64,000 nucleotides of DNA from Scleroderma bovista (taxonomy: Eukaryota; Basidiomycota; Agaricomycetes; Boletales; Sclerodermataceae). A program made the translations under genes and the position numbers. Positions 6,470-60,092 of the stretch are shown here, one piece after another. Below the pieces are notes generated by a model. That model was not told the origin of the DNA and ran no database searches. It saw only the letters and a list, made by a program, of their open reading frames with translations. The stretch spans positions 62,001 through 126,000 of the forward strand of contig JAYMGJ010000680.1 in the NCBI GenBank assembly GCA_037178675.1. The letters run 5' to 3'. How positions within the stretch are numbered: position 1 is the stretch's first letter; each line of letters opens with the position of its first letter.

Positions 6470-6475
6470 CTGTCC

Positions 6476-7320
6476 CAAACGAATGGCAGACAATTAATAG
6501 CGTCTGGAGAATTCGTCGAGAGCGTGGTTTCTTTGTAGTGGTCGTTTCAAGAACGGCAACAGGTTGCGGAGTTGAAGCAAAATCGCACACCACGCTCGCG
6601 TCTGTGCACCTTGGATTGTAACCCTCACCTGTCAACTCAAGTTTTGATGGCTTGGATACACCGCAACTTGCATTGCTGACGCTCATAATCGCAGCTGGCA
6701 ACATTCGAGCATTATTTCGCTGGATCATCGGAGGCACAAATTGCGGACTTTTCGAAAATGTTATCGCGCATCTCAAATGCTCTACCTACCTTCGTCAAAG
6801 GCCCCCCAGGCAATCAGCTGGCGGCTAGCTTCTGCAGAGCACATGCCAACGTCTTCAGCATCGATGAGCGCTATTGCTGCAACCTTGTCTCCGGCCCTCT
6901 TCGAGACAACGCCACGGTGAAATAATTCCAGTAACTTCGCAATGAAGAGTACGAGGGTTGGTCCCATTGCAGAACTCACTTGACGCATTTCAATCTTCTC
7001 TACCATTTTCTATGGCTTGACTGCGATTAAGGGGATTTCCAAGACGGTTGGAGGAGGAGGACACCATTCATATGTTCCGGGCGGTCCCACACGTACAGCA
7101 TAGCCAGTGAGTGTCTTGATTCACTCAAGTGCATTCCCCTGTTGAGAGGGACAATAGGATGAACGTTTCGATACAGCATTGGCTTGTGAACTAGGTTGCT
7201 CTTGCTGGGAGTTCCCCCTTGGACGGACAGTGTCTTCGGTTGCTTCGTCGTCTTGCATCACACCAGTCGTCTTGAACAGGGCCTTGGAGCATTCGCGGAC
7301 ACACACGTTGAGTTGTACAC
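6476..7320 (-). other. Duplicated unidentified coding-like unit R, left copy
   Basis: Minus-strand frames at 7306-7121 (RECSKALFKTTGV..QDDEA), 7006-6782 (LFHRGVVSK...DAEDVG...AWGAFDEGR) and 6776-6456 (ASCGVSKPS...EGYN) each have a counterpart in the right copy (RECFKTLFKTTGV, FHRGVVVK...DIEDVG...AWGSFEPGR, ASCGVSKPS...ESYN). Between copies, several differences in these frames fall at third codon positions, and a GT donor follows the shared GR residues in both, so this looks like an old gene with introns. No convincing ATG or full splice chain joins the blocks, and I do not recognise the family. It may be two decayed copies of one gene. Confidence 0.45.
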
Positions 7321-8112
7321 CAACTACATGGTGGTGAAGAACAACTCGCCTGTGAAATTCTACGTCCTATGGCAGTGACGTGACGTGACGTGCCCCTTTT
7401 TGTTGTGACATGTCACGCACCATGCCCATAGCTCATTGGCTTGCATTCGCGACAGGGCTGCAAACTTGAAATCCTGGGTGTATGCACAGAACATGCATCT
7501 AAGAGGTACAATGGGAGCTATTTTTGGTGGTGTGGGTGGCTTTTTTCGGAGCATGAGGCCTAGGTTAAGGCGTCTCGACTCAGACGTTTACCAAGTCGCA
7601 AAATTGCATTCCGAGCAGCCAGGGACTATTGTCGACAGCGTCTACGAGCAGTTTGACATGTGTCATGGAAACCTAGAGGGAAAAGGACCTATCTGGCCAC
7701 ATTTATGTGCAAAGAGGTTCATTCAAGAAGCATGGCATAGCTGTTCCACCTCTACACTTGTCGTAGGTCTCTGGCGATGGGTGTAACTCGTTTTCATGGC
7801 GCTTGCGGTCTTGTGGAGATGGAGTTGGATATGACTACTCGAACGCATAAATGGCTCCGCGGAAGCAAATTGTATCGTTGAAGCCCAGTTTGTGGTTATG
7901 ACAAGATGCCTACTGGAATAGGCGCCGTGTTGACCCAGGTCCCCGCTTTTGAGCCATATTGGAGTCTAGGCTTTTCGTGGATATGGGGTGTTTGACTCTC
8001 GCTTCCTCGATTTTATTCTTTCGGAATACCGGTCCCTGCTGCAAATTTAAGCTTCAGGTTGGAGTCGAGGACCACCCCCATTCTTTTTCTTCCTTCCCAC
8101 TCTACTGAACTC

Positions 8113-8600
8113 ATGGACTCGGGCAAACTTCCCAACTACAAGTCTTCATACCTGCTTCGATTCCACCCATATCCAAGGGTAAAGCCTTCTGCCCGCGAGA
8201 GAGCGATGGTAAATCTTCTTTTCACCCTTCTCTCACAGCGTTGACAATGTCCACGGTGATTAGGCTACTTTGGAAGCCGCTGACGAGTACAGTATCTCGT
8301 CCTACGACGGGGTTTCTACACCTTCCTTTCAATCTACCGACTTTGACGTGAGGTTCCAACTGGGTTCGTAAAATCTTGCACTGACGACTACGATCTTAGG
8401 ATGCTGCCTTCGGAACCACGCAGAATTTGAACAACGCTATCCATATCATGCAAACTCTTGATATTCGCCAACGACGGCGGCTAAGTTTCTCGTCGCTGGT
8501 TGTGGCAAGTACAGCCGTTTCCACAATAGAACAACCAATTCATGATGCGCTTACCCAGGACCTGGCACTTTTGGCTCGGAAGCCATCTTCAGGTGCCTAA
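8113..8600 (+). CDS. 108-residue orphan protein, paralogue A
   Basis: Exons 8113-8208, 8264-8347, 8400-8504, 8559-8600; 108 residues. The product starts MDSGKLPNYKSSYLLRFHPY, has a basic R/K-rich N-terminal part (KPSARERAM), a serine-rich middle, a helix NLNNAIHIMQTLD followed by QRRRLSFSSLVV, and a C-terminal LARKPSSGA. No signal peptide or membrane helix. The second copy at 58517-58031 has the same four exons, near-equal exon sizes and the same total length. The third intron here (8505-8558, 54 bases) begins GCAAGT; it is in frame and open, so without the paralogue it would be read as coding. Function unknown; I know no family for it. Confidence 0.75.
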
Positions 8601-8753
8601 TCACATTGCGAGCGGGTTCAGCTCACGATGAAATAAATGCACCATGTTCCCCGTCCACTGCTCGTGAGCAAATGATAGTAGAACGTCTCCAGGTGTATTT
8701 GTACATATGATGTGTCAGTATTACAGCGTAATATAAAGTACTCGATCGACTGC

Positions 8754-11700
8754 TCAAGCATTCAGTGTCCGTTCCAAAAAATCTTCTTCGCACCACCCAT
8801 AATATTCTTTTAAGCGCTTGCTAATTTTTCTTAGTCTGGTGGGGTCAATCGTTGGATCTGGGTGGGCTGTAAAATTACGAGTCAGATTGGCAACTTTGAG
8901 GGGGGAGAAATATACGTTTGTGGATAGTGATCGACTAAGTGATTGTATAAAATAGGCAGATAGAAGGATGGGGTCAGAACAACCAAAGTCCAAGACACAA
9001 AAAGCGCTTACCTTATCCGCTTTATTCGGCGGATCGAAACGAACAGATGACCCTGCAGTGCTCGGATCATATGAAAAACCCATCTCTCTCATGATCTATG
9101 GCATTAGTAGACTGCAATGAGTGATGCTTCTCGACGACATGAGATAGTCGCCTGTACCTTCAAAAAGTTTTCCCATTTAAGTCCACCTTTATCATCTCCT
9201 ATGTGCAACAGTCGCTCCATGTACCCCTTGGTCTTCTTCCGGAGTCTGGAAAACACTGAAGGCTTCTTTTTGTTGATGTTCGCTTCAGATTCCTTCTGCA
9301 CAGGATGCTTGTCTTTATCTTTCCCGCTAAGCTTCGAAAGGAACCCCTGCTTCTCCGGAAATCCGGATGTATGGTGAGGACGCGATTTAATCTTTTCTTT
9401 CTGAGGTCCTAGCTCTTGCAGATATGCATGGGCAGACTTGGCAGTAGTTGGCGCGATCTTCAACGAGGTAGTTGACACGTGTCCGAGTGACGTCATTGAA
9501 GCATTTGAGTCGGGAAGTTTGCTGGACAGCGACTTGGAACGAACTTCAGCAAGTGAACCTGAAGTGGTACTCTCTGTGTTGGCTATGGAGGCTACATCTT
9601 CTTGTACGGTCGCCAGTTCGTCAATTACGGATTGTTTCTTCTTCGCTTTCTTCTTCTTCTTCTTCTTCTTCTTCTTGCTGGTAGACGACATTGCATCGAC
9701 TTCGTCTTCAACGTCCTCGACCGTGGCACGTTGCTCCCGTGGTATCAATGGGATAACAGTTGCATTCACACCCCTAGAGGGGGGATGATCGTGTGGCATA
9801 CCGGACACGGCCGTGGAGGGCTCTGTTGTGCAGATCTTTATAGTCCGCTTTTTCCTTGGGGTGGCAAGGGCCCGAAGCGGGGGAAGATCATCCTCGGGCA
9901 CATTGGATAAGTCGATGTCGAAGGCAGGAGTGACATTCCCTGTAGTCTTGATTGCTTGCAACTTCGCTCCGAGAACCCCTTTCCTTGGTTCAGTACGACT
10001 GGTTGCGCTAAGTTTGGCACTTGATGAAAACATGCGTCCTACAAGGGCAAGTCAGAAAAATTGTCCGTGATAATGCTTCTGCATGTTGCTACCTCGTAGG
10101 GAGCTAAGCAGTTTCAAAAATGGGTTCTCCTTACACTCCTCTGCCATTGCATCGAATTCCGGGACGTGAGCGTTGCGATCAGAGAATTCGGGAATGGCCA
10201 TAGCAGCGTCCATTGCCTCTCTGAGAAAATTCCTATATACTTCTTCTTCTTCTGGGTCATACGCTGTCTCGTCGTCGTCGTCGTCGTCATCGTCCTCCTC
10301 ATTTCCTCCCTCATCGTCATCGGTGTCGTAATCAGTGTCACTCTCGTCAGATGTGTCTGAAACAGATCGAAGACCCGGCATGTCGTCGTAGCTGTCGTCG
10401 GAACGCCCGTCGGTAATCGCAAGAAGCTTCCGTTGTTGTTTCTTCAATCCATTCTTGCGCGAATTTTTGACTAGGGCTGTGGTGGCATCTTCACTTCCAG
10501 AATCGTAGTCGGACATAGGGAAATTGGGCACATAGACAACACTCCACTGGGGCGTCCTGCGGTGCGCATCCTCAAGTTGCCAAAGGTTATCGATGAAAAC
10601 ACTCGACACCCCAAAGTAATTCTGGGTATTGATGGTTGGTAACGAGCTATTTGGCTGAGACATGTTAAATCGCACCATATCTATGGCCTTCCACATGCGA
10701 TCCAGAACTGCTTGGCTCCTCGTACTCTCCAGGGGGTTGATGATGTCCTGGAAGTTCTCATACGATTCGGATGCTTTTTCAGAGTATATCTGCGCGTCAA
10801 GCCACAGTTCATATCGTTCTGGCATCTTGCGTGGGGAGGTCTTGAGCTTTTCTCCTTCAGGCCCCAATAATGGGCTCTCGAGGAGTTCCTGGAGTTCAAG
10901 GGTGACCTATATTGGTCGGACAATGCGGTCATGATGCTAATGAATCAAATCACTCACTGAAAGGTCGCCCACTGCATCCCACATCGTTTGGGGAAATCGC
11001 TTCGCCTCCCGCGGGGATTCGTCAACAGCGTCGTGGAGAACCTGGAAGAGGATACGTTTCGGATATGGCGCTCCTGGAAAGCACAGTTCGATTATTATAG
11101 AGTCCATGAAAGATTTGCAGGCATCCTTGAGACCACTCCAATCGAAAACAACTCCAAGCTCCCCTTTTTTCGTACTCTCAGCAGTTTTAAAGTAATGAGA
11201 ATAATGAGCTGCGATAATATCAGCAATATGTAACAAAAGAGAGGAGGCATCGTACGGGTGGTTGTAGCGAGAACAGAAAACTGCATTTGGCGAAGATCGA
11301 CCAGGACATTGACGACATCGCAAAGGGCCAGATATCTGGAACGCAATCCATCGTCTTTCCGAAGCTGAGCGTGGGCAGTTACATCCTTCAACCCCGACTT
11401 TTCCAATCCTCGAAGGATATCCAGGACAATCTTCCACCCGGAAGCTATCACATACGCGTTATGGATTCTGCATTCTTAGGGTTCAGACGAAACGAATATG
11501 GTGGATGAGAAGACATATATACCTAGTTGCAACTACCGAGGCGACATGGGAGGTATTAGACAAAATATCTTCGATTCCTCTTGAAGTAGTATGTGGTGTA
11601 CGAGCAACGATCTCATCTTTAATCGTGTCGTAAAATAGCTCGGAGTCTTTGAGGGCAGCGATACTATCCAGGGAGGCTGAAGACAATGAACAATTACAAA

Positions 11701-12107
11701 GGCTTCAACACGTGAGGAATTGGGTGCATACCATTGAACTCAGACTCTGCGATTCTGATGCATTTCTCCAGCTTAAGAGGAGACATTACGGCGGTGCATG
11801 CTGTCTGCTGTACCAGATCCTCTACACGGGCTCTCTCAAAGGCTGGATGCTAACACTGGGAGGCACGAATCCTACCTGCAAGGAGATCAAGCTTTTCTCT
11901 TCCGCTTATTTTACCAGCCAGCATGAGCTCCCCACCTCCTCTGGCACCGTACTTTCCATTACGAAGGACGAGGGCGCGGGAAGTAGAGGGTTTATAGCCA
12001 CCTCCATCTCTTTTTGCATGAGAAGCTTTCTGGACATGCCTTGGACCCACTGGGACTAGATCAGTGACCTTGGAGGGAATGGGGGGCTTGTTCGTTTTCT
12101 TGGACAT
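8754..12107 (-). CDS. Large uncharacterised protein with C-terminal HicA-like domain
   Basis: Exons 12107-11876, 11821-11732, 11676-11523, 11467-11256, 11208-10958, 10906-10093, 10038-9158, 9095-9012, 8934-8916, 8866-8754; 949 residues. N-terminus basic (MSKKTNKPPIPSKVTDLVPV). A helical region of about 280 residues is followed by an acidic run (about 8 Asp) near residue 530, a run of about 10 Lys near 640 and a basic linker ending KKTKGYMERLLHIGD. The last 70 residues read MREMGFSYDPSTAGSSVRF ... HKPHPDPTIDP ... LRKISKRLKEYYGW, the order seen in HicA-type RNA-binding/RNase folds (GSS...RF, then H-P-x-P-x-I and a helix). Exon 9 is only 19 bases and supplies SITIHK. The first intron could instead be 33 bases long with the same frame. 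Role unknown; nuclear location is likely from the basic and acidic runs. Confidence 0.75.
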
Positions 12108-12608
12108 TTACGCGTGCGATGGAGAGGTGCGACATTTGATTTGGACTTTGATACGGACATATTGGGCAGGTTTGCTTCACCTTTCATTCACCGACTTCGG
12201 ATGCGCTTTGAAGCCAACGGCCAAGCTGTACTCCCTTCGCGTACCGTTGGAGGAGTATACACTCGCCGATTCTGCATGGCAACGCCTGCAGTGGAAGGAT
12301 AGTTCAGTCCGACATCTTCCTCTACGAATAGTCTGGTTTAAGGAGACTGGCAACTCATTTATCTTGACATGCCCTAATCCTCCCGTTATCCATCACGACT
12401 TGAAAATGCTCGTCGCCATTCTGTTTCGTCTGGTGGTTCCGTCGACGACGAAGACCGTGGTCGCCACAGTAACGAAAAAAGTCACGTGCGACACGAGGAT
12501 CTTTATATTGATACCAGGTCTCCTTGTTCGCCCTCTCTTACTTTTGCTTCGGTAGGTGTATCCCCCTCTTTGAACCTAAGCGTGCCAATGTACTCCCCGC
12601 AGCTGCCC
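12108..12608. promoter_or_regulatory. Divergent intergenic region
   Basis: 501 bases between the start codons of the HicA-like gene (minus) and the DUF7727-type gene (plus). It contains an E-box core at about 12480-12487 (GTCACGTGC), the sort of site bound by bHLH factors such as Cbf1. A 163-codon open frame on the plus strand crosses the region but has no conserved features and I treat it as chance. Confidence 0.4.
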
Positions 12609-29700: not shown

Positions 29701-32140
29701 TAGGGGGATTAATTGTGCACTCTTTGAGGAAGTTCGGGGGCCTGAAGACCAAGTACTTGGAAAAGGGAACAGTTTCTGGCTCCGCCTTGAGAGCTTCTAA
29801 GAAAGGACGAATAGCCTCAAACATGACCGGCGACTCTACGAGCATCTTGACATCCTTAGACGATCTCCGGTTCTCAAGAGCCTGTAGGATTCGGAGTTCG
29901 ATTTGACTGTCGAAGAAGACAATGCGTATCTTGACACGCTCACTGTCAGAGCGAACACCGTCAGTTAGCTCCTTCAAAGAACTCGCCACTACACCGAGGT
30001 GAACGGCTATCCCCATGGTGGTCTCCCAGACGAGAGCAATAAGTCCTCCTTGCGGAAGTCTTTTCCCGCTCATCCCCTGCCAAAATGCCACCCGTGTTTC
30101 AGCCTGTCGGGAACTTGCACGACCCGGTGGTGCTCGCAAACTAAGGCTTACGGAAAGACCACGATGGTCTGGCACGATTGAAGTGAAGTTGACGTCAGAA
30201 TAAACGTTGAACATGATCGAGTTATGGTTGTCGATGTGACCTGTGTACTTTCCACCGTTCTTCTCAAGGACAGCATGTAGCTGAGTTTTGGCACGATTTG
30301 CGGCCTTTAAATCATCATGGACGAGTTGAACAGCCCTTCGTAATGGAGCGCTGCCAATACTCGGTCAATACTGAGTAAAGCACGATTGAGTGGAGACCTA
30401 CGTGAGTTCCTCCCTTAAAAGACGGAATTGGACATCCAAAAGTCGTTGCATAGATTCAGCTGGATCAGGATGTGGAGCTTCGTACAGGGTGGCTGGGAGA
30501 AACGGCTCAACCCGACACATAAGCTCTTGGTGAGTAGGAGCCACACGTATGTCATAGCAGTCTATATAGTCATTGTCGTGCCGGGGACCACCTGGACGCA
30601 ATTCCCCAGGGGGGTCATAGCTGCTTTGCAATGCTGCGATGAGCCCCTCGTTCGCTCGGACAGCGGTAGTGTTCGGAGACTTGACTCTGTTGGACTCCAT
30701 CTGTTTACCGACTTCTCGATCCACAATTGCTTTCAGACGGTCTACCCTTTCTTTGAGCGAATTTATCAACAGATCCCGAACCTTCGGTTCTACGTCTTCG
30801 AAAGGATCTTCGAAAGAGCGGGGAGACGAGGAAATACCCTTGCTCCACTGGTCAATCCATGAGTGGAGGTTTTTCACCAAGGGTGCCAAGCGAGGATACA
30901 ATGCAACAGCATTTTTGAAACGCACTAGACATCTAATGGTGTGGTCATGAGTCATATTCTCGCATGGAAATGGTAACCGAAATTTTACTCATAGAGTACG
31001 CCAGCTATAGATGCTAAGGCTCTTGGTCCGATCTTATTACCGAGTCCAAGACCCCCGAGAGGATCTAAAAAGGAACCAGAAGTCATGATAGCCGTCATAC
31101 AGCTCTCTATTGCATCGGCAAGATTTGGTAGGTTTTGAAGAATTGCAGTGAGCAGCGCACTGTGGTGTGCTTAAAAATAGTGCAAAGCCATATAGAGGAA
31201 ACATACTTGACTCGAGAAACAAGAGTACTCTTCACAACGAAATCAGATGATAGATACTATTCGACAATACGATAAAACTTCGGAAGAAGACCACGAGACA
31301 ACGCTTACCCCGAGGAGAGGGAGCACACCTTTCTGGAACGATAATATTTCACGACTTGAACCAGCGCAAGCAGACACCTGGGGCCAACGGATAATGTCCA
31401 CTATCCGTAAGAGACCATTTTGCTAGAGGAAAGATGAGTCGCAACGTGATATATATTACGTAAGAGCACAGACTGTGGAAATAGTATTCAGCAGAAGCTA
31501 TAACAGGAAACGTGAGTATGATGTCACCGGAAGAAGCTTTTCAATAACCTACTTGACCATCTTCCTGAGTCTACCGCAGTCGATGAGAACAACGTGTAAT
31601 TATGTACAAGAGACGACTACTTACCCATTGGCCGTTGGATGAGTTAGCACTAGTGAGCGGCACCAGAAAGCTATAAACGTGGTAGGTAATTTGAAAACTG
31701 TAATTGTCGGCAAGAAACCTCTTGAGAGTATTGTGAGCTTCTACCGGTGACAATGAAGTGGATGGGCCCAGAGTGAGGAAGCCGTCTGTGCCACCAGCAT
31801 TCAGTCTGGAAAGACCTTGTTCTGTGAGGAACGGCGCCAGACGCTCTCTGAGCGGCGTGGGGGGAGCCACTGGGCGAACGGACTGGATAAGTTGCTTGGG
31901 TGCTCCAGGACCTTGTTCGTGTCGATAGCGACAGTTGAACTCTCTGCCACAACGCCCCCGTTCCCAGTAGAAGCGACAGACACCCCTCGGAGGGGGAGGA
32001 ATATTGCCAGTACTGGCCTCAGAGGTGGCAGGAGAAGATGGCCGAGTGGCATGGGTGTCGTGACGGAAGTTGCACTGATCGCCACGACGACAACCACCCG
32101 GTGAGCTGAAGAAACGACATGGTGGACGCTGCAGAGACAT
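23779..32140 (-). CDS. ZNFX1-type NFX1 zinc-finger helicase
   Basis: 29 exons: 32140-31625, 31570-31553, 31497-31474, 31422-31309, 31256-31207, 31159-30989, 30932-30402, 30350-29496, 29444-29426, 29379-28288, 28243-28192, 28138-28110, 28057-27916, 27864-27723, 27667-27517, 27461-27424, 27367-27166, 27117-27073, 27025-26927, 26874-26856, 26806-26600, 26548-26490, 26439-26267, 26225-25803, 25751-25712, 25653-25584, 25532-24099, 24042-23987, 23937-23779; 2309 residues. N-terminus: two C-x8-C-x5-C-x3-H fingers (residues about 7-70). SF1 helicase core: QGPPGTGK on a 19-base exon (about 760), AYTNHALDH, LLVEEAGQ (about 1165), DPLQLRPT, VDNYQGEE and ALSRAREGLYIFGN. Then NFX1-type Cys/His fingers (about 1480-1800), a helical region, and a C-terminal RZ finger (GHFYNCPNGHTFVIGDCGG...CPECGAPIGG). 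Relatives bind RNA in RNAi-linked granules or silencing. The intron 25533-25583 is in frame and open. Confidence 0.92.
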
Positions 32141-32220
32141 TTTGTTGGCCAGTCTTTGTCCGAGACACTTTAAATAGTACGCTTATCAAATTATTGGACG
32201 CGGTCTTCTCTGTATTCGCC
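32141..32220. promoter_or_regulatory. 80-base bidirectional promoter
   Basis: Only 80 bases separate the start codons of the ZNFX1-like helicase (minus, 32140) and of ETF-alpha (plus, 32221). Both transcripts must start inside this stretch or inside each other's 5' region. Confidence 0.7.
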
Positions 32221-33362
32221 ATGCTGCGTACAACCCTTGTCCGAACATTTCGCAGAGGCTACGCAACAGCTGCTTCACCCCATGCCCTGGTCTTTTTAGA
32301 ACACCAGGGGGGGAAACTCGACTCTGCCTCGCTCTCTGCGCTCACGGCTGCGTCACAACTCGGCGGCAAGGTCACTGGGCTCATTGTTGGCACGGCTGAA
32401 GAGCTACCACCTGTTTTGGAGCAGGCCAAGAAGTATGCACTATCTTTCATTTCTCTCTGCCCAGCTCTCACGCACCTCCCTAGGGCCAGGGGTCTGGATA
32501 CTTTGTTACATGCTGCGTCGCCACAGTACTCCACGCCCTTGCCCGAAACTATCACCCCGCTGTTCGAGAAGTTACTCTCAGAACAATCCCCTTTCACACA
32601 CGTTGTTTCTGCCCACTCTTCATCTGCCAAATCCATCCTACCCCGTGTAGCTGCTAAACTTGATCTACCGGCTGTCTCCGACATCATTTCGGTGCAGCAC
32701 GATCAGCCATCCAATAGCACCACGTTCACCCGCCCAATCTATGCTGGAAACGCAGTCTCGACCGTTCGAGCTTCTCAATCCATCTCTATCAAATTCTTCA
32801 CGGTCCGATCAACAGCTTTTTCTGCAGCTGCACCAGCGGATACAGAAGCTAAAATAGAAAGCATCGACGCCGTCCCCGTCCCTGATCCATCAACAGAACA
32901 TATCAGTACCTCGCTAACTAAATCGGATAGGCCTGATCTGGGTGTGGCTTCTCGCGTGGTTTCCGGTGGACGTGCCCTCAAGAACGCGGAGACGTTCAAA
33001 GCCACCTTGGATCCACTGGCGGATGTGTTGGGGGCCGCCGTTGGCGCTTCAAGGGCAGCCGTAGATGCTGGATACGCCGACAACTCCCTCCAAGTTGGAC
33101 AAACTGGAAAAGTTGTTGCTCCAGAATTGTACATGGCCATCGGCATATCCGGTGCCATTCAACACCTTGCAGGCATGAAGGACTCGAAGCTTATCGTGGC
33201 AATTAACAAGGTAACGTAGTTCTTTCAGCTCTTCACACTACATTCTAGACCCGTGCGCAGGACCCAGATGCACCCATCTTCCAGGTTGCAGATGTCGGCC
33301 TTGTCGCAGACCTGTTTCAGGCTGTGCCTGAGATGGTGGAGAAGCTGAAACCGCAAATGTGA
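32221..33362 (+). CDS. ETFA: Electron transfer flavoprotein alpha subunit
   Basis: Exons 32221-32432, 32484-33210, 33261-33362; 346 residues. The mitochondrial matrix ETF passes electrons from acyl-CoA and other dehydrogenases to ETF-ubiquinone oxidoreductase. The start [19 protein letters not shown] is a basic, Arg-rich presequence. The FAD domain is clear: [56 protein letters not shown], then [19 protein letters not shown]. The first intron (51 bases) is in frame and open; splicing gives [16 protein letters not shown]. The open frame continues upstream of 32221 to 32119 but the first part overlaps the helicase start and lacks family similarity. Confidence 0.95.
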
Positions 33363-33363
33363 T

Positions 33364-33612
33364 TTTAACATTAACCAAGAGGTACACTAGATCTACTAGT
33401 TACTCCATCCTCGACTCGATAACACCGGAATCCATGATCCATGCTTCGACCTTAGGTTTCCCAGACTGTGAATCCTGTGCTTCGATCGCTTTCACGACGT
33501 CCATGCCTTCGACGACCTCGCCGAAGACGACAGGACGATTTTCCAGCCAGGAGGTAATGATGAAGAACTGCCGCATACAGTGACGTAGGAAGTGCATGTC
33601 ACTTGAATTGAT
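33364..33612 (-). pseudogene. Cyclophilin 3' fragment (partial duplicate of 36167-36425)
   Basis: The minus strand reads [31 protein letters not shown] and [10 protein letters not shown], the last exon of the cyclophilin at 36215-37086 with its 3' flank and part of the last intron. Versus the intact gene it has lost four codons (TAVT), carries substitutions in conserved sites, and its stop has moved. Similarity stops near 33612, so upstream exons are absent. It lies 2 bases beyond the ETF-alpha stop codon. Confidence 0.9.
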
Positions 33613-36078: not shown

Positions 36079-36214
36079 GATGAGATGACTGGGAGATAGG
36101 CTCGAGCTCCATGATGGCCGTCGAAATGTCGCCTAACGTTAGTAACTGGCTCGTTTGGCAACACAACACAAAATTAACCAAGAGGTACACTAGATCTACT
36201 AGTTACTCCATCCT

Positions 36215-37086
36215 CTACTCGATAACACCGGAATCTATGATCCGTACTTCGACCTTAGGTTTCCCGGACTGTGAGCCCTGTGCTTCGATCGCTTTTACGA
36301 CATCCATGCCTTCGACGACCTCGCCGAAGACGACATGACGATTGTCCAGCCAGGAGGTAACAGCTGTTGTAATGAAGAACTGCAGCATACAATGATGTAG
36401 GAAGTGCATGTCACTCGAGTTGATGATTGCTCACCTGTGAGCCATTTGTGTTTGGGCCAGCATTCGCCATAGACAAGAGACCGGGCTTGGTGTGTTTGTG
36501 CACGAAGTTTTCATCTACGGAAGATGAGTCACCAGATAAGAAACTAATTGGCGGATAAGTACACACCCTCAAAACGCGCTCCATATATTGATAGTCCACC
36601 GGTACCATTAAAGTTGGTGAAGTCACCGCCCTGGATCATGAACTGCACAATAATACTGAGCTACATAGGTAGCGAGTGGCAATGAGAACAACTAGCCTGA
36701 GGGATAACTCTGTGGAACAAACTTCCCGCGTAACCCATTGTTTCATTCTTCTCCTGTTCTCCAGGGGGGGATGAGAACTGGTGCGGGGCTACGTTGGCCA
36801 GCTCCTCCTTCGGGATCCCAATAGCCAGCTTCCGGAAGTTCTGTGCAGTCTTTGGTACCGTGTCATCGTAGAGCTTGAACACGATGCGTCTGGCAGGTGG
36901 CTTTCCAACTGCAACGTCGAACTAGCGTGACATAGCAGACGGGGACAGTGCACGAGAGAAAGAAACGTACGAAGACATTGCCTCTTCATACACGAAGTGA
37001 GAACAGATCAACAAGGCCCGTGACAAGAAGAGAGCTTACTTGGACTTGGCCGCGGAGGACATGAAACGACGGAAGACCATGGACAT
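36215..37086 (-). CDS. Cyclophilin-type peptidyl-prolyl cis-trans isomerase
   Basis: Exons 37086-37040, 36983-36971, 36921-36697, 36642-36567, 36514-36435, 36379-36215; 201 residues. Catalytic and cyclosporin-site residues are present: [59 protein letters not shown]. There is a short insertion after NFRKLA ([15 protein letters not shown]...NETMGYAGS). The N-terminus [15 protein letters not shown] could act as a weak mitochondrial presequence. Exon 2 has 13 bases. The intron at 36643-36696 starts GCTAGT, a GC-AG intron with a poor donor. A truncated copy of the 3' end lies 2.8 kb downstream. Confidence 0.93.
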
Positions 37087-38293: not shown

Positions 38294-41200
38294 TCATCGC
38301 TTCCCCGCAATCCCAATACGATTACGCCCTTTCTTTTTTGCGGCTTGACTGAGAGGGAGATATGCATAAGGCTCTAGCCCACCTTTCTTGACATCGCCAC
38401 CCGCCTTCTGTTTCCACAGTGAGGGGAAAGATCAACACATGAGCAGTAACCGCACCTTTGCTTTGAATTCGTGCCCAAGCTTGACCTCAGGTCGTCGGCG
38501 GTTCTTCTTGTCGCTGGTCAGCGTCTCGTCGCCCATCTCCACGTCTCCATCTTCGTCCTCATTTTCACGCCGCCGCTTCTTTGTATCCTTGTTGAACTTC
38601 ACACGCCCCCTGCTATCCCGGGTGAACCCATCAACAGATGTTAAGCTTTCTTTATAGGCCCCCCCTGCCACATCCTTTGCGGCTTTGCGAGCGCCGGCTT
38701 CGATGTCGGAATCAGACTCTTCAGCGGGTATGACCATCTTTCCTGACTCCGAATCAACTTTGAAGCGATCGGCATTCTTTCCTGCCTTTCGTCTGCGGTT
38801 TGCTGAGGCACCTGAAGGAAGGCGCGTTGGTAATTATGGCCAATGGACGTACAAGCTTCACTTACTGGTCACTCGGGACGCAGCACCTTGGAGGAGATCC
38901 ATCGGGTCATCATCGTCAGCGCGTAGTCGAACGCCATACGCGGCACCTTTGCCACTCCCTGCGGTAGGGTGCCCGACTTGCCCTTCATCATCGGTGTCTT
39001 CATACTCACTTTCACTGCCATGCAGCACGTCTTCAAATGCATCGCCTGTAGGAACATTTCCAGAAACCACCTATCAAGGATTAAGATACATCGAATGAAA
39101 AAGGTAAAACAAAACACTTTTTCGCCACTTTCAGCTCCTTCTGCGCGGGCCTTCTTGCGCTTCGCCCTATCCTTCCGCTTCTTGATGTTGACAAGTACCT
39201 TCGCAGCTTCTTCTTTTCCGGCCGCCGAGTAAATGTCTTCCCAACCGAACCTTCTGATCATGCGTTCGAAAATGTGGCGAACTTTCGCCTTGAAATGGTT
39301 TTTGTGGTCGTGGGACCATGAAAGAAGTGCAGGTACCAGCTCGGCAAGGTGGGGCTTCAGAAGGTCGACTGGAAGAGTGTGAATGGCAAGCTTAATGTAC
39401 CCAAGTGTTGACTTGACAATCTCGCGATTATTGGATGACAAAAAGACCATCAGGGTAGTGAAGACATCAGCTTGCACCTGTGGTTCAATAACATCTATCG
39501 AGAATCGTCAAAGTCTACATCAAACTCCACAATGACCATGCATACCTTTAAACTCGAAGACAAGCCGAGAAATCGCCGTCACAGTGGCGCTTATCATGTG
39601 TGGCGTTGCCCCACCGAGACCAGCAGCGACCATGGTGATGTATTCGTTAATAGACGCCTTAGCTGAAGGAAGCACTCAGCTTCCGACGTTTCGAAAGAGA
39701 GACCACAAACCTTCACACGTGTCATTGCTGTCCATCTCGTCGAGCATCTGTCGCTTTACCATACCACCTTCACACATCTTCCTGCCCATTGTAACGACCA
39801 GGTCAAACGCAGCCAACCGTGCCTTTTCGGAAGGTTCTTTAGTTCCTAGGACAGCCTCCGGAATGAGCGACGGGATAATATGCATGGATGTCGAGGGGAT
39901 CCCGGGAACAAGGGAGGATAACAACACAAATCGGTCCTTCTTGGCCGCAGGAGAGAGTCCAGTCACGAACGAATCCAGCGTTCGAAGAGTGTCCAGCACA
40001 TCAACTTGTAACTTTCCGCTGCTTATTGATTTTGCCAAGAGCTTATAGCCACGTTTCTGTATACCGTTGTCCTTGCAAGACAAGACCTCTTCCGACAGAC
40101 AAAGGCGGAAGAGCGAGGTGATGTCAGGCGTTTCGAGGAAAGGCAGGAGAAGAATGAGGAGATCTTGCATCGTGGCCGCCACAGTTGCATTCTGTTGGAC
40201 ATTGGGTGCGTTGGTGACTCTTTGCAGGTGTTGTTTAAAGAGCCCGACAACGGTGAGGCATGCCTTCGAGACATCCTGGCTCTCTGCAAGGTTCGCCCAG
40301 ACACCAATGACATCTCCGGCGACCCCTCTGCAATCTCTGTCTACACTGCCGAATATGTTGAAAAAAACGGCAAACCAGCTTTCGACCTGGCTCTTTAGGA
40401 ACGCGACATTTTGCGCAGCCTCCTCGGGCGTGGCCGACCCTCTGATCGTCAGATGGCCAGCCTCCAAATCCGTGCTGGAGTTGTCCTCCGAAGCGACAAC
40501 AAGGTTGGATTCTACCAACAGCTTGAGACCCTTAAGAACAGGTAGTCGAAGGTCGGGATGATTGTATAAGAGCTGCGACAGCAACTGAGAAAACGCGGGG
40601 GTGAAAGCCTAAGACAGATTAGAATTAGATCACTAAAGTATGACGGCAGACACTCACATTCTTTACATCAGGGGATGCATTACAGTACCCGGCGAAACCC
40701 GCCCACACCTGCGAAACAAGGACACTCCACACCTTAGCTTCGGACTGTCTGCCCTCAGCGTCTGCTTTTTGCTGACGGTCAAACATCCGTTCGCTAAGAG
40801 GTACGAAGTATGACACAAAGTGGCTCAGCGGGGATGGATGCGGCTGAGCGAGCATAGGTAGAAGGAAAGCACGCGGCTCACGACCAGCTTGTCTACAGCG
40901 TTGATCAGCGCTGAATCAACGGGCTAGAGGATAACACGGACCGATCTTCAGGCTCGAGGTTTAATGGAAGCGCCTGTAGAAGAACCGCAGGACCAACCAC
41001 TCTCATCGCAGTTGAAAGAACGGCATCCGCCGCTTCCTTGTGTTCAAAGTTTTTCTGGACTCTCAGCTCGGCCACTTGTTGTACAAGTGGCATGAGGAAA
41101 ACCTCAGCAGCAGTCGTCAATTCTCCAACCTTGACCCTCATGTTTAAATTCCTTATAAGGGACGAGATGATGCTAAGCAACTCTGGCACTGCTTGAGCGT

Positions 41201-46203: not shown

Positions 46204-46286
46204 GTCCTTGTCGATTAGTGGTTAGATCATCACGTTGTGGACCTCCCAAAACCGTGAAGACGGAGGCTCGAATCCTCCCTGGGACA
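46204..46286 (+). tRNA. tRNA-His (GTG) with short intron
   Basis: 83 bases: acceptor GTCCTTG/CTGGGAC with one T-T mismatch, D-arm GATT...GATC, anticodon stem TCACG/CGTGA with loop TTGTGG (anticodon GTG), an insert of about 11 bases (acctcccaaaa region) just after the anticodon as in eukaryotic tRNA introns, T-stem GGAGG/CCTCC around CTCGAAT. A T-rich stretch follows, as for Pol III termination. Confidence 0.85.
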
Positions 46287-52220: not shown

Positions 52221-53889
52221 TTAGAGTATGTCATCTTGAGATGGTGGTTTGTGGGTTGCTACGTATCTTCGCAGGTCCTGCGAGAGGGTATAGCCACACT
52301 GACCCAACTCCGTCAAGGCCAACGCATATCGCGAATCACCCGCAACAACACAGGTTCGAATAATAGCTTCGTATACCCGTAAAGGCGGCAAGAACTTCTG
52401 CGCTTTCATTTCCTCCAGGTAAAAGAATGCGTCCTCGTAGGTTGGCTGTGTTAGACAGAGCAGGATGATTCGCTCATATGTCAGAGCATTTGGACGAATC
52501 CCGGCCTGTTTTAAATCCAGGAGTAACTTGTCCCCAAGTCCCCGGTGCTTCGCATCGATACAGCCACGTAAGAGGAGGTTATAAGTCTCGATATCTGGCT
52601 TGCTAGCGTAGTCGTTGAACGTCTTGTATGCACCTATCGCACGTTGGAGATCTCCGAGCGTAATCGACGCATCGATAATGGCATTAATGGCGGCCGCATC
52701 GATGCTGTGGCCCTCATCCCGTAGCCCATCCAGAATCTTCCATGTTCTATCGACTCGGTCAATGTCGTTCTTCAGAAGGTTCGATATTGGCTGGACGGTT
52801 TCTGGGCGCGGCACAATGCCATTGCTCCGCAGTAGGTGCAGTGTACCAAATGCCTCCTTCAACTTTCCGGCGCTGGAAAATGCTTCGAGAAGAGGGGCAA
52901 AGTGATACTCTTGCCATTCAACACCGATTGAACGCAGGACGCGAATTGTGTCTGTGGCGAGGTCGGCTAGGCCATGACGGGCGCAGGTATGAAGAACAGC
53001 AATGCAGGCGCCCTCATCTGGAGTGAGGTTTAGTTCATGAACGGCCTTTTCCCAACATTTCTGGACTCCATCCGCCTGCAGTAATATCAGCTTCTCAGTT
53101 CGACCACTGGCTACCAGGAAAATAGACAACTGACATAAAGCAATTCCGCGGAAGATATAAGGCAAGCCATCCACGTCTCCCCGTCGATTCTACGAACGGA
53201 GTGGACTTCGAAATTCTGTGCTAGATCGATTGCAAGTCTTGGAAAGTACAGATCAGCGGCTAGCTTAATGACATCCTGGGTGGCTGTCAGATCCGGTGGA
53301 AAACCACGTTTAGCCATCTCGTGCATGACTTGTAGAGCGAGCTCAACGCCTTCGGTAGCTGTTATTCGCTTGATGATAAGAGCATATGTTTGCTCGTTCG
53401 GTGGAAACCCTTGCTCAGCCATTTTTTCCAATGTTTCCCATGTAGGTTCGAGGGGTGACCGTCTTAGGGCCTGGAGGACGTCAGGTTTCGTGGCACACCT
53501 GTGAGAAGATGGGTACCTACATGGAGAATGTGGTGATATGACTGCCGATCAGGTGAAATGCCCATGGCATGCATATCGTCGACGACAGCCCAAGCCTCCA
53601 GAGGTAACCCTTCTTCCGCAATGCAAGCAAGCAGCGAATTATATATGACGATGTCTGGCTTTACACGTTCCCTTTTCATCTCCCGTACCAGGCGAAGACA
53701 AGGGATCAGTCGTCTCGTTCCCTTCGCATGACTGATGGCCTCATATTGGCACCGGGCCAGCTGAGTTACTGATCCTCGAAATGTATTGTCCTGGTTGAAA
53801 GCCCAAGGTGTGATCTTTGAAGGTGCCGCCATCGTACTAGAGAACCGGCATTGACAAGTCCGGAGTGCTGTTTGCATAGTGAGCTTCAT
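52221..53889 (-). CDS. Mitochondrial PPR protein
   Basis: Exons 53889-53521, 53470-53135, 53075-52221; 519 residues (515 if ATG 53877 is used). The N-terminus (MQTALRTCQCRFSST) looks like a mitochondrial presequence. Repeated 35-residue helical pairs of PPR type cover the protein: PDIVIYNSLLACIAEEGL, PPNEQTYALIIKRI, PDEGACIAVLHTCARHGL, PDIETYNLLLRGCIDAKH, PNALTYERIILLCLTQPT, PPLRVYEAIIRTCVVAGD. Such proteins bind organellar RNA in a base-specific way and act in processing or translation. The first intron is taken as 50 bases (53471-53520); a 22-base reading would break the frame of the next repeat. Diverges from RAD21 over 299 bases. Confidence 0.87.
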
Positions 53890-54188: not shown

Positions 54189-56475
54189 ATGGTGAGTGGC
54201 ACCCCTGTTTTCTTGGCGCCTTGATCCTGAACGCAGTGCAGTTCTACTCAGAGGCCATACTGTCGCGTCGCGGCCCCTTGGCTAAAGTATGGCTTGCCGC
54301 GCACATGGAGCGCAAGCTCTCGAAAACGCAGACTCTACAGACAGATATCGAGCAGGCTGCAGGTAAGCATTCTATACCATGGCGTATGAAAGCTCGTTCT
54401 CAACACCACGCTAGATGCGATTATGGGACAGGAAGTTGAAGTTATGGCGCTTCGTCTCAGCGGGCAACTATTGCTGGGTGTCGTCAGAATCTACAGTAGG
54501 AAGGCAAAATACCTCCTAGACGACTGCAATGAAGCTCTACTGAAGATCAAAATGGTGCGTGCCTCCTAGCGTTGTGTCATCTACACTAGGTATGACTTCT
54601 GTTTTTCAGGCATTTCGCCCAGGAGTTGTCGACATGTCAGAAGACCAATTGGCTGTAAACCGCAATGCAATCACGCTTCAGGGCGGTACCTTGGACTTGG
54701 ACGTCCTTATTCCCGACATTAACTGGTCAAGTGCCATCTTTCGCCTTCCACGTGGCTTTACTTATACCTCTGCAGGGACATTGACTTTGAGGACCGAATT
54801 GCAGAACCACAGGGCCACCACGTCGCACGCCAAGCGGATGTCACCCTTCAAACAGCGGAGGATTTCCAACTCGACCTGGATGATCCAGGCTACGGGTTTG
54901 ACCTTGGTCCCTCTGATGGCATAGGCTCACAAGACTTTGGTGAGCTGGACCTTGGCCTTGATTTCGGTGATGGTCCAGTCAGTGCCGTCGACGGAAGCGT
55001 AGAAATTGGGCGTGACGCACCAACACCACGGAGTGCAAGGGAGTCTCTGGATTCGAGAGTGATGGCTCATGGTATGGAGAAAGACATGGATATCTTCTCG
55101 CATGCTAGCAGGGCACCTTCTGAACACAGGTTCGGCGCGGATATGGATGTCGACATGGCCTTTGGCCCCGACACCGGTATGGATATTGATCTAGGCTTGG
55201 ATTTCGGTGACGGTCCCTTGAGTGAACGAGAGAAGACCCCCGGCCAGACAAGATCACCGTCGCGAATGTGTAAGCCTTAAATATATGTTTTCTTTGATTA
55301 TCGTTGAGATCCTTTAAGCATCTCCACTTACCGAGCCTCCACAAACGCCACCGCCGGACTTTCAGCTTACTCCACGTGCCACAGAGACATTTCCCGAAGG
55401 CGAAGTTGATGCAGAGGCTCCCAAAGTTAAACGAAAACCCAAGGAAAAGAAACAAATCATTGACGCGGTCATCGAACTGACAGACGGGCCTGGAGGTAGA
55501 GGTAGAGGTGGCAGGGGCTTTGGCCCCCCAGTTGTCAGGGACGTTAGCGATATCCTAACTGAGCAACGTTTCCTGCCTCGCTCTTCGATGGTGATGCGTC
55601 TCATGGAAATCCGAGAGGATCCTCTGGCGCATTTCCTCCCTACCAAGGTTACCCCTGAAGGAACGTATCTTTGTGTTGGTCCGCCGGGATTGGTACCTGA
55701 ATTAAACGATCTGTTTATGCGTCCGGTGCAGACTGCACCGGCTCCCAAGAAGAGGGGCGCTTCTCCAGAGAAAAGAGACAGGAAGAAGCCGAGAGTGGAT
55801 GGTAGTTTACACGAGGACGAAGAAGTTGAACAGGGCCGACGCGACCAGAGCGTGGCGCCGAGCATCGGAGTAGCCGGTGAGGCGCTCGGTCGTCGCGCGA
55901 GCCTTGTACCCGATGGTGGCTTCGACTTTGCGGACATGACTGGTGGGGTGGATGACTTCCAGTTGGATGTTCCTGGCGAATTCCCCGTAGCTCAAGAGGA
56001 TCTCGGAACCGACCGCGCCAGGAGTGTTGCCCCGTCAGAGCTAACGCGTCTTTCTACGCCGGCAGTTGATGGCGAAGAAGGAGATGAAAGTTATGCGGAC
56101 CTTACCTGTCCCATCGCTGCCTTTGACACTCGGCCTACACCATCATCCCAATCTCAGGAAACGGAAGGCGATAGTGAGAGCAAAGGCTATAGCAAGAATA
56201 CCGTGAAAGCACTTGGACTTATACGTCAGGAACTACAGCCCACAGACGATGGCGAGGGTCGCGTGATGAGCTTTGCTAAAATGTCACAAAAGGCATCAAG
56301 GCGAGCTGCATCCGCATTCTTCTTCGAATTGCTTGTTTTGGGTACGCGCGACTGTATCAAGCTCTCACAGAATTCTCCGTTCGAGAACATAGAGATCCGG
56401 GCCAAGAATAGGCTCTGGGAATATCAAGGGGGGAGTTCTTTGGGGCGATCCACTGGATCTGCCGTGGGTGCATAG
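54189..56475 (+). CDS. RAD21: Cohesin kleisin subunit RAD21/SCC1
   Basis: Exons 54189-54191, 54242-54362, 54415-54554, 54610-54725, 54776-55269, 55319-56475; 676 residues. The first exon contributes only the ATG. N-terminal kleisin domain: [58 protein letters not shown], which binds Smc3. Central acidic region with two LDFGDGP-type repeats ([28 protein letters not shown]) and basic patches. C-terminal winged helix ending [18 protein letters not shown] and [13 protein letters not shown] binds the Smc1 head. Length fits fungal Scc1/Rad21. The donor at 55270 (GTAAGC) rather than 55268 keeps the frame. Confidence 0.94.
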
Positions 56476-57059
56476 TACGACCGGTATGTTTTCTTCACCA
56501 ATATCATCTTTGATTTTATGAGCACTAGACGGATTCATATTTACTCGATGTACGATCGTTCGTCATTGATTTATTTTGTTCTTTTGTCCGGTTGACTGCA
56601 TTATTTCGATGCATTTTGTAGCAGCACAATTCTCGTGTCCGTTCCATCCATTCCATATCATATTTCACTTATCCCTCTCTCTGCGGGCTGACGAAGTATT
56701 TTCACATGTCATCTACCATGTACATAGCAATGCCAAGTCTCAATCTTGACGTCATTGTCTTTAAAAAAGCTTGATCGTATCATGGCTGAAAAGCAAATCT
56801 CGTACAGATGAAAAACCCCTCTCCCACAACTCGGATTGCAACTGTCAGTAGGCTGTCGAAGATCAGACTCTGGTGTCTTCATTCGGTGAGTGCACCTTCA
56901 GAAACTTATCGTCCGCTTGATATGTTTACCGCCGTGGCGAATTGACAGAAATGGCCCCTGGTATATTGAGGTCACAGATTTCCCAAACTCCAATGACATC
57001 AGCATTGCTAGCAGAGAGGCTTTCAGCGAACGGGCCAAGTTGCATCGACGAGGTCACAG
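56476..57059. other. RAD21 3' flank, no gene
   Basis: 584 bases of AT-richer sequence; contains the RAD21 3' untranslated region. Small open frames from 56890 lead into the F-box relic but are broken. Confidence 0.4.
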
Positions 57060-57560
57060 GAGCTGTCCCTTCCCGGGCCCCATTCTATCCCATGCCGCCT
57101 GCCACCAGAATTATTGACTGCCATTTTTCTCGAATACGTGCAACAATACGAGAAATCCCCATTTTATACGACAGGGGTTCCGCCTTGGGTCAACGTTTCC
57201 TACGTCTGCCAGTACTGGCGTAGTGTCGCTCTAAACTGCGCTAACCTTTGGTCACATCTCTTTTTCGCATCATCAGGGTGGATGAATGAATTGCTCAGAA
57301 TGTCAAAAACTGTCCCCCTGATTATTCATCGATTTCTTTCAGAGTTCGAAACTAGGGAAAATCCGTTCCCCGGAGAAAGCACAAGCACTGGGGCATATGG
57401 AGCGCATCCGGGTCCTTTGGATTGATTGCTACTGTTCTACAGATGCCCTCAGCATCATCCTTGCTAGACTAACTGCAGCCGCACCATTACTGCGGTCACT
57501 TCACCTATCTACGTATGGCGACGGTGAAACTGATATCATAATACTCAAAAACACCGTCAT
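57060..57560 (+). pseudogene. F-box protein relic
   Basis: The plus strand reads LPPELLTAIFLEYVQQYEK (F-box helix) from about 57096, then VPPWVNVSYVCQYWRSVALNCANLWSHL (the usual second F-box half), then KTVPLIIHRF. Around 57372-57385 the frame shifts by one base and continues as MERIRVLWIDCYCSTDALSI and LTAAAPLLRSLHL, which is the leucine-rich part of agaricomycete F-box proteins. Upstream the expected N-terminal coiled coil is spread over two frames. The rest of the LRR is gone. Confidence 0.75.
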
Positions 57561-58030
57561 TTTTGTGTGGTTATGATTACATGACTCCACAAGAACTTTC
57601 CAATGAAAGGATGTCGACATTCCGTCGCTTGAACCTGCTGAAAGGCTCCATGTACGGTTGATTCTTGGCGAGGTGAGTGTTATGTACGTACATCAAGTCA
57701 ATCACAACGTATGCCTCTCCAAACAAAACGTTTCCACGAGTCTGACCTGTAATTGTATAGCTCATCCAGATCTAACACTTACAGCCAGTAACCTGAGATG
57801 GATTCGCGAACGATCAAAAGATTATGGATGGTCAGACAAGGACTTAGAGGGTTCATAAATATTTGAACAATATATTACACAGCTGCACTGTTTTCAGTGG
57901 ATATAAGTACAAGATAAACATTGGCAAGTAATCATATGCCTACTAAACCCTAGTCTGGTCACCAGACTAACTAAATCCCAGGATGAATTATTTGTTTCAT
58001 TATTCGTGTTCGAAACTACTCGCTAGGTGA

Positions 58031-58517
58031 TCAGGTGCGTGACGATGGCTTACGAGCGGGACGAAGAGCCAGGTCCTAGTGGGAAGCGTATCATAATTAG
58101 TTGTTCAACTCTAGGAACTCTACTTACCACAACCAGCGAGGACAAACTCAGCCGCCGTCGGGAAGTATCGAAAGATTGAGTGGCATAAATCGCGTTATTC
58201 AAGTTTTGCTTTCCGTTGGCGAGTTCCTGAAAACATGGGCGTTAGTGGAAGGCAAATGAGAACGTAGCTGAAGCCCCACGGAGTCAGAGTTGGCAGGTTG
58301 CAAGAAAGGCGCAGAAATCAAGGCGTGAGACGAGACAGTGTCGTTGTCAGTGACTTCCAAGGCGGCCTAATCAGCACACGGGTTGTCAGTGCTCTACAGA
58401 TGAAGTAAAAATAAGACTTACTATCGCTCTCTCGCGGGCAGAGGGCTTGACTCTTGGATACGGATGGAACCTGAGCAAGTAGGACGACCTGTAATTTGGG
58501 AGTTTGCCTGAGTCCAT
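58031..58517 (-). CDS. 108-residue orphan protein, paralogue B
   Basis: Exons 58517-58422, 58366-58280, 58226-58128, 58075-58031; 108 residues. MDSGKLPNYRSSYLLRFHPY and VKPSARERAI are almost the same as in paralogue A; the middle differs (SSHALISAPFLQPANSDS); the helix NLNNAIYATQSFD, RRRLSLSSLVV and C-terminal RKPSSRT match again. Exon sizes are 96, 87, 99 and 45 bases against 96, 84, 105 and 42. All introns here start with GT, including the third (58076-58127). Conserved ends with a variable middle, and many third-position changes, point to a gene under selection in both places. Function unknown. Confidence 0.75.
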
Positions 58518-59224
58518 GAGTGCCGTAGAATGGAGGGAGAAAAAAAACGATGGCGACGATCCTCCACTGCAATCTGGGCCTTAAATTTGCAGCAGAGACC
58601 GGGATTCCGAAGAAACGGAATTGACCAAGCGAGACACCCCATGCTAAAGACTCCGCTCTGGAACGAGGACTTTGGTCCACACGATGCTTATTCCAGCAGA
58701 CACTTTGTCGTAACAAAGTGACCAGGCTTCGATGATACGATTTTGCTTCCGTCGAACCACTTTGCGTTCAAACAATCCGATTCCGCAAGATTTCCAGCGC
58801 CATGGACACGAGTTACATCTGTCTCCGGCGATGACCCACAAGGAGTGCAGTAACAAGAGGCCATACGGTGTTCCCTGAAGTTTCGGACAGTGTTGCATGT
58901 GGATCGTGGTCAAGCAAGACCTGGTACTTTGTACTCCGCGTTCGACACCATGACATCCATCCTGATAGTTTGTTTTCGTTGTCGGCATCATTGCCTAACT
59001 GCTCGGGTTGCAATTTTGCAGTTTGGCAGCTCTCCGGGTCAGGGAGCTTCAACCTGGGCCTTCTGTTCCACACAACGGTTCCATTTCCCTTCCCTACATG
59101 CAGCTTCCCAGGAATTCCAACGTTGCAGTCTTGCAAGCCGCATCCGTCGGTAACGAGAGAAAAGGGGCGTAGTCACGTGACATCGCTGGCATAAGAACTT
59201 CACAGGCGAGTTGTTCCATAACCA

Positions 59225-60090
59225 TCATGTAGTCTCCGTGTGCAACTCAACCTGTGTATCCGCGAATGCTTCAAAACCCTGTTCAAGACCACTGGTGTGA
59301 CACAAGATGACGAAGCTGCGAAGACGTGTCCCCTCAAGTTTTCAACAGGGAAGGCCCAGGCCGCCCAGCAATTCTGTTAACCAACGAGATGTCAAAATGC
59401 TCATCTTATTGTCCCTCCCAAAGGAGGAATGCACTTGAGTGAATCAAGACACTCACCGCTATGCTGCCTTGTGAGAAGCCACGGAACATGAGGAATGACG
59501 CCTCCTCCCCTCCAATCATCTTGGCAACCCTTCTGACGCAGCAAGTCTTGAACAATGCCAGAGAACATTGGCGTGCATCAAGTGAGTTCTGCAACGAGCC
59601 CAGATCTCCTACGCTTCGTGACGAAGTTATTGGAATTTTTCACCGTGGCGTTGTCGTGAAGGATGCCCAGTTTCCAGTCATGTGGCTCCTCGACATTGAA
59701 GACGTTGGCCTGCGGTGTCCAGAAGTCAGCAACAGGCAGAGTGCATGGGGGAGTTTCGAGCCAGGTAGGTAGAGTATTTGAGATGCGCGGTAACATTTTT
59801 CAAGTCTGCAAGGCGTGCCCCGAAGATCCAGCGGAATAACGCCCGACAGTTGCAAAGCAACAACTCATGATTATCGCGATCAGAAAAGCAAGTTGCGGTG
59901 TATCCAAGCCATCTGAATTTTCTGAGTTGGCAGGTGAGAGCTACAATCAACAGACGAGCAGTGCACCTCTTTCAACTCTAACTCCGAAACCATTTTGTGA
60001 GGCTTTTGCCGTTCTTGCAACAATTGCTCCAAACATGCACCCAGTTGGCGATATTATCCTCCTGCCGTTCGTTGGGGACACCATCCAATG
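59225..60090 (+). other. Duplicated unidentified coding-like unit R, right copy
   Basis: Plus-strand blocks: about 59262-59330 (RECFKTLFKTTGV and QDDEA), 59541-59770 (EVIGIFHRGVVVKDAQF, DIEDVGLRCPEVSNRQSAWG), and 59867-60090 (KASCGVSKPSEFSELAGESYN). Each pairs with a block of the left copy. The stretch at 59415-59456 (gaatgcacttgagtgaatcaag) is nearly unchanged between copies. As on the left, no single splice chain with an ATG could be built. Confidence 0.45.
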
Positions 60091-60092
60091 AA

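What the first reader, a model, noticed from the sequence alone, without database searches (positions are those of the whole stretch)
6470..60092. A two-gene segment is present twice, in inverted order, 50 kb apart
Bases 6470-8604 and 58027-60092 share the same series of blocks in reverse complement: an unidentified coding-like unit R and a 108-residue gene with its promoter flank. The flanks between the two units match as well, so it is one duplicated segment of about 2.1 kb. The rest of the window between the arms is mostly single-copy housekeeping genes. Inverted arms at this distance could cause inversion polymorphism between strains, and gene pairs of this type often belong to lineage-specific families.
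Basis: seen in the sequence. Interest (0 to 1): 0.75.

Follow-up and report, generated by a model that had tools for sequence, protein, structure and literature searches.

The report
Old inverted duplicate of mushroom gene
In a mushroom genome related to Scleroderma, a small gene of unknown function and an unusually conserved stretch of DNA beside it were copied long ago, and two of the copies sit as an inverted pair 50 kb apart in this window.

Summary
The duplication is real. Window 6614-8612 (copy A, +) and 58019-59948 (copy B, -) align at 68% identity over about 2.1 kb, E = 0.0. The genome search finds two further copies: C, about 10 kb past the window end on the same contig, and D on another contig.

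The "108-residue gene" is a genuine four-exon gene: 108, 108, 108 and 107 residues in A-D, intact splice sites, clear purifying selection between A and the rest. It belongs to an unnamed small-protein family; every named hit listed is from boletoid fungi.

Unit "R" (A 6614-7400) shows no convincing protein-coding signal, yet is as conserved as the gene's exons and clearly more than its flanks. It was found only beside this gene. I read it as an upstream control element or a non-coding RNA.

The duplication is old: A and B each pair with a different Scleroderma citrinum protein. With 31 bp as the longest identical run, A and B are poor arms for inversion; B and C would be better. Mostly ordinary gene-family duplication; R is the interesting part.

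The parts
6614..8612 (+). Copy A of the duplicated segment (significant part)
   Evidence: BLASTN against B
6614..7400 (.). Block R in copy A: conserved, no coding signal; strand of action unknown
   Evidence: Ungapped identity to B/C/D 75.8-77.8%; coding tests; genome search
7107..7130 (.). 24-base core of R containing inverted repeats (CTTGA-TTCAC-TCAAG), identical in all four copies
   Evidence: positions printed are one base too high
8113..8208 (+). Gene copy A, exon 1 (ATG at 8113)
8264..8347 (+). Gene copy A, exon 2
8400..8504 (+). Gene copy A, exon 3; the intron after it starts with GC instead of GT
8559..8600 (+). Gene copy A, exon 4 with stop codon
8754..8870 (-). Probable last exon of the convergent neighbour gene in A; degraded relics of it lie at the matching end of the other copies
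   Evidence: reading (A-D piece 8850-8934)
58019..59948 (-). Copy B of the duplicated segment (significant part against A)
57706..61134 (-). Wider copy B as shared with C and D
   Evidence: B-C 82.6% over 3525 columns, B-D 78.3% over 3328
59160..59948 (.). Block R in copy B
58422..58517 (-). Gene copy B, exon 1
58280..58366 (-). Gene copy B, exon 2
58128..58226 (-). Gene copy B, exon 3
58031..58075 (-). Gene copy B, exon 4 with stop codon

Best explanation
This is an old segmental duplication of one small protein-coding gene with its upstream DNA. An ancestral locus of type A was copied before the split from Scleroderma citrinum; one copy lies inverted about 50 kb away on the same contig, and that lineage also gave C and D. 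Shown: four homologous segments, an intact spliced gene in each, constraint on the protein, raised conservation of R without a codon signal, and separate pairing of A and B with two S. citrinum proteins. Inferred: A is the ancestral locus. Inferred: the protein is small, mostly disordered and regulatory or adaptor-like, acting through two conserved motifs, LPxYxSSYLxRFHPYxRVKPSARER near the start and RRLSxSxLVVDLALL near the end, whose RRLS resembles a PKA site (recalled, untested). Inferred: R is an upstream control region of this gene, kept with it through the duplications.
For: Alignment of the arms and four copies in the genome. Gene models with matching introns, dN/dS 0.23-0.59; for A against B, C and D, 0 of 1000 random placements reach the observed synonymous share. 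Relatives in other boletoid fungi and invariant residues over 65 sequences. Tree pairs A with P0001 (100/99) and B with P0014 (99/88), both listed on a scaffold of 1,120,035 bases. R as conserved as the exons, and more than the left flank and the stretch towards the promoter, in all six pairs. The 24-base core of R occurs only in the four copies, with 0, not 1-3, mismatches. Mostly low-confidence structure model with three short helices.
Against: Selection on the gene between B, C and D is not clear-cut: 66, 112 and 9 of 1000 random placements reach the observed value. R is not significantly more conserved than the gene's short introns in four of six pairs, R's limits were chosen from the match itself, and no transcript, chromatin or reporter data exist here. 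Four metagenome protein predictions match the R reading frame of B at 69-94%. Ancestry of A rests on my reading of a degraded neighbour exon.
Confidence: 0.6

Rival explanations
1. R is transcribed as a non-coding RNA, perhaps spliced and antisense or divergent to the gene, and acts on the gene or elsewhere.
For: Raised conservation without codon signal. Four donor-like GTRRGD sites are conserved in all four copies on the strand opposite to the gene, against one on the gene's strand.
Against: No Rfam match at gathering score; with loose thresholds none in A and only a chance-level one in B, E 0.42. No fold signal: 36 windows in R, mean z -0.31, lowest about -2.6. Four against one donor-like sites is not tested against chance; I estimate about two per strand in any one sequence of this length.
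Confidence: 0.22
2. R is a second protein-coding gene, with short exons or relaxed constraint, partly decayed in A and D.
For: An open frame of 103 codons in B and the matching frame in C (109 codons stop to stop); 50 codons match at 86% in C, 72% in D, and 47 codons at 47% in A. Four metagenome proteins at 69-94% identity, well conserved over about WRASSEFCNEPRSPTLRDEVIGIFHRGVV. B-D dN/dS in this frame is 0.66.
Against: Codon-position differences 5/6/3 (B-C), 13/8/12 (B-D), 25/31/23 (B-A): no third-position excess; dN/dS 1.8 and 1.1 for B-C and B-A. The frame on the other strand also fails (2/3/0, 10/4/5, 15/19/17). Indels that are multiples of three: 4 of 20, 6 of 23, 4 of 24, 3 of 6, 2 of 9, 2 of 10 in the six pairs (all). 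Stop in D. The coding scan peaks on the gene (z 3.9-4.1); windows in R reach at most 2.6 among up to 780 windows per reference. No named annotated protein among the four hits.
Confidence: 0.14
3. The segment is a transposable element or a relic of one that carries the gene.
For: Dispersed copies in both orientations on two contigs.
Against: Four copies only; no inverted repeat of 14 bases or more at the ends of copy B (B only); ends differ between A and B/C/D; the ends carry what looks like a relic of A's neighbour gene; relatives of the gene are spread over many boletoid genera.
Confidence: 0.04

Closest known systems
Unnamed small-protein family of boletoid fungi (for example SCLCIDRAFT_19565 and SCLCIDRAFT_19621 of Scleroderma citrinum; several members in Pisolithus)
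   Same: Same length class, same two end motifs, six invariant residues over 65 aligned sequences; A and B each have their own S. citrinum partner
   Different: Listed relatives are annotated only as hypothetical or uncharacterized; whether R lies beside them could not be read here, except that one R-like and one gene-like metagenome protein share a longest-contig length of 191,046 bases
Mycorrhiza-induced small secreted proteins (recalled)
   Same: Small, poorly known proteins of largely ectomycorrhizal fungi
   Different: By eye the N-terminus has no hydrophobic signal-peptide stretch; no predictor was run; the family also occurs in Hygrophoropsis and Leucogyrophana, which I recall as not mycorrhizal
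Conserved non-coding elements next to duplicated genes (general kind, recalled)
   Same: Non-coding block as conserved as the exons of the neighbouring gene

Membership tests
Unnamed boletoid small-protein family | Invariant residues R16 F17 P19 R22 R28 E29 and the two end motifs | tested here: met
   Alignment of 65 sequences including copies A-D
Unnamed boletoid small-protein family | Closest relatives are family members of a sister species | tested here: met
   A with P0001 (100/99), B with P0014 (99/88) in a tree of 35 of the proteins at hand
Unnamed boletoid small-protein family | Restriction to Boletales | tested here: inconclusive
Protein-coding gene (block R) | Codon-position bias and frame-keeping indels | tested here: not met
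Known RNA family (block R) | Rfam match at or above the gathering score | tested here: not met
   loose searches
Secreted effector (small secreted protein) | N-terminal signal peptide | not tested
   No predictor available; by eye no hydrophobic stretch at the N-terminus
Transposable element | Terminal repeats at the ends of the segment | tested here: not met
   inverted repeats of 14 bases or more, copy B only; direct terminal repeats and target-site duplications not tested
HicA-like (neighbour gene of A) | Pfam PF07927 at the curated cut-off | tested here: not met
   17.2 bits against a cut-off of 27, E 0.0054

The most novel reading that the evidence does not exclude
R is a roughly 790-bp non-coding control element or RNA that has been kept, about as strictly as an exon, beside each close member of an order-restricted fungal gene family through repeated segmental duplication, so that gene and element form a two-part module.
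Probability: 0.35. Interest if true: 0.5.

Novelty: new member of a known kind. Interest (0 to 1): 0.3.

Why it matters
It gives gene models, with intron boundaries, for members of a family whose named relatives in the listings are all 'hypothetical' or 'uncharacterized', and it flags a long conserved non-coding block tied to it. If R proves regulatory, the four paralogues are a natural series for studying how control DNA and a young gene family evolve together in boletoid fungi. The inversion idea itself is not strengthened.

Tried and rejected
R as a protein: a kinase-like reading made by eye was dropped; Pfam gave nothing above cut-off (best ATP-synt_J at E 0.14) and the codon tests failed. 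R as structured RNA: 160 windows over the segment, one below z = -3 and that one outside R. Known RNA. Protein domain for the gene: none for A and B; the 36 members of A2 gave only scattered weak hits, none in more than 2 of 36, best E 0.0081. Solved structures: one hit, E 0.56. The structure model (mean pLDDT 58.1, pTM 0.23) was too weak to search with. The 18-base block GACAACGCCACGGTGAAA of R: 4 exact matches, all in R, plus 9 places with 2 mismatches, against 2 for the reversed control, so it is not informative on its own. Fifth relative on C136: found with two of three protein queries, at E 0.009 and 0.006, not with the Pisolithus query; it is weak.

Papers: search listings only for (13 papers; one paper, on Boletus flavour; 4 papers, none on topic by title; 15 of 293 shown). 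Of PMC10066745 I saw only passages returned by a term search. Nothing on this family was seen in these; that is no proof that none is in print.

Limits: dN/dS are simple NG86 values on about 108 codons; the coding scan is my own simplified test; gaps were left out of identity counts; R's limits were taken from the BLAST match, so the p-values are nominal. One search used ranges shifted by one base; one search repeats it correctly and is the one cited. The tree used 31 chosen relatives of the proteins found plus the 4 copies.

Full report
Observation. The window lies at G000:C679:62001-126000 in an assembly of 51.8 Mb and 850 contigs. The gene's closest relatives that bear a species name are Scleroderma citrinum proteins, so I infer a Scleroderma-like boletoid fungus.

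Copies. Searches of the genome with each arm find four places: A (window 6614 onward, +), B (window 58019-59948, -), C on the same contig at about 134.7-136.6 kb (+), some 10 kb beyond the window end, and D on contig C22 at about 51.0-52.9 kb (-). The tool calls its counts lower bounds for large families. B, C and D share about 3.2-3.5 kb at 78-83%; A shares about 2.0 kb of significant similarity with them. A distant fifth relative of the gene appears on C136 near 67.9-68.05 kb (E 0.009, 0.006, not found; frames read); no R was found there.

The gene. Removing three introns of 52-56 nt gives 108, 108, 108 and 107 residues in A, B, C and D. Splice sites are GT-AG, except that A's third intron starts with GC. 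Exon lengths differ only by multiples of three. dN/dS is 0.23-0.37 for A against the others and 0.33-0.59 among B, C and D (all). For A against each of the others, 0 of 1000 random placements of the same changes reach the observed synonymous share; for B-C, B-D and C-D the numbers are 66, 112 and 9 of 1000. The protein is clearly constrained over the older interval and less clearly over the recent one.

The family. A single-sequence search gives 72 proteins at E up to 10; a profile of 36 sequences gives 187, of which 120 were listed. Every row with a species name that I saw is from Scleroderma, Pisolithus, Gyrodon, Paxillus, Phlebopus, Imleria, Suillus, Boletus, Rhizopogon, Leucogyrophana or Hygrophoropsis; that these are all Boletales is from memory. 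With 67 rows unseen and many unnamed, restriction to Boletales is likely but not proved. Several Pisolithus species have more than one member with the same longest-contig length, which suggests clusters. Six residues are invariant over 65 aligned sequences and two motifs stand out, one near each end. The model is mostly of low confidence, with short helices at 27-40, 69-79 and 90-101. I read the protein as mostly disordered and regulatory or adaptor-like; this is inference.

Block R. Ungapped identity of R between A and B, C, D is 75.8, 76.4 and 77.8%. The gene's exons give 76.0, 77.9 and 80.5%; the left flank 58.3, 57.1 and 56.5%; the stretch between R and the promoter 61.5, 62.9 and 62.2%; the introns 65.6, 67.7 and 70.7%. 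R exceeds the left flank and the middle stretch in all six pairs (p from 2e-18 to 0.02). It exceeds the introns at p < 0.05 only in A-B and A-C. It equals the exons in five pairs and exceeds them in B-C (93.5 against 87.2%, p = 0.0008) (all). The longest identical B-C run, 106 bp, lies in R.

Is R coding? In the two frames tested there is no third-position excess, indels are mostly not multiples of three (in B-C 3 of 6 are), and D has a stop. dN/dS is near or above 1 except B-D in the minus-strand frame, 0.66. The coding scan peaks on the gene at z about 4; windows in R reach 2.6 at most, and some windows elsewhere outside the gene reach similar values. Against this, four unnamed metagenome proteins match the R frame of B at 69-94%. 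By eye one of them reads its first twenty or so residues as if in another frame, while the part after WRASSEF is well kept. I take them as mechanical open frames in a conserved block, but they keep the coding reading alive. One of them (P0076) and one gene relative (P0066) share a longest-contig length of 191,046 bases, which suggests the pairing of R and gene in another assembly.

What else R could be. There is no Rfam match at gathering score, and with loose thresholds only a chance-level hit in B. There is no fold signal in R. A 24-base core with inverted repeats (7107-7130) is identical in all four copies and has no other match in the genome within 3 mismatches. R was found only in the four copies, at E up to 10. 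I therefore favour a private upstream control element, with a non-coding RNA as the main rival.

History. In a tree of 35 proteins A pairs with S. citrinum P0001 (100/99) and B with P0014 (99/88); 11 of 32 inner branches are open and some rows are long, but these two pairs are starred. Both S. citrinum proteins are listed with a contig of 1,120,035 bases, so the linkage of A and B probably predates the species split; orientation there is unknown. In A the segment runs into what looks like the last exon of a convergent neighbour gene, and the other copies end in degraded relics of it by my reading. I infer that A is ancestral. The neighbour's weak HicA match is below cut-off.

Inversion. A and B share no identical run longer than 31 bp in the 4-kb pieces compared, which from general knowledge makes recombination between them unlikely. 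B and C are the more plausible arms. No strain comparison was possible.

Context. Genes between the arms include ETF alpha (32119-33216), an RRP12-type HEAT protein (39679-40584), a PPR protein (52224-53174) and a Rad21/Rec8 C-terminus (55588-56472).

Verdict. The duplication is real, old and part of a small gene family; the inverted arrangement is ordinary. The feature that may deserve work is R, a long block conserved like an exon, without coding signal, and found only with this gene.

Noticed in passing
33367-33612 and 36170-36424: A direct repeat of about 255 bp, 89% identical, 2.8 kb apart; the genome search finds only these two places. Nature unknown.
   Followed up: partly
57714-61134 and C679:133510-136918 (window-equivalent 71510-74918, past the window end): Copies B and C form a closer inverted pair, 82.6% identical over 3525 columns, about 10 kb apart; the ORF with the HET domain lies between them.
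   Followed up: partly
62674-63996 (-): ORF of 441 codons with a HET (heterokaryon incompatibility) domain, E 8.5e-11.
   Followed up: no
46204-46286 (+): An 83-nt tRNA match by Rfam that ARAGORN (bacterial setting) does not report; perhaps an intron-bearing or long-arm tRNA.
   Followed up: no
8505-8558: Intron 3 of gene copy A starts with GC, where B, C and D have GT.
   Followed up: yes
L021 (G000:C136, about 67.9-68.05 kb, -): A weak, distant fifth relative of the gene, without block R.
   Followed up: partly
8754-9092 (-): The convergent neighbour gene of copy A has a weak HicA-like match below Pfam's cut-off.
   Followed up: no
2419-3189 (+): ORF with an RraA-like domain, E 6.6e-28.
   Followed up: no
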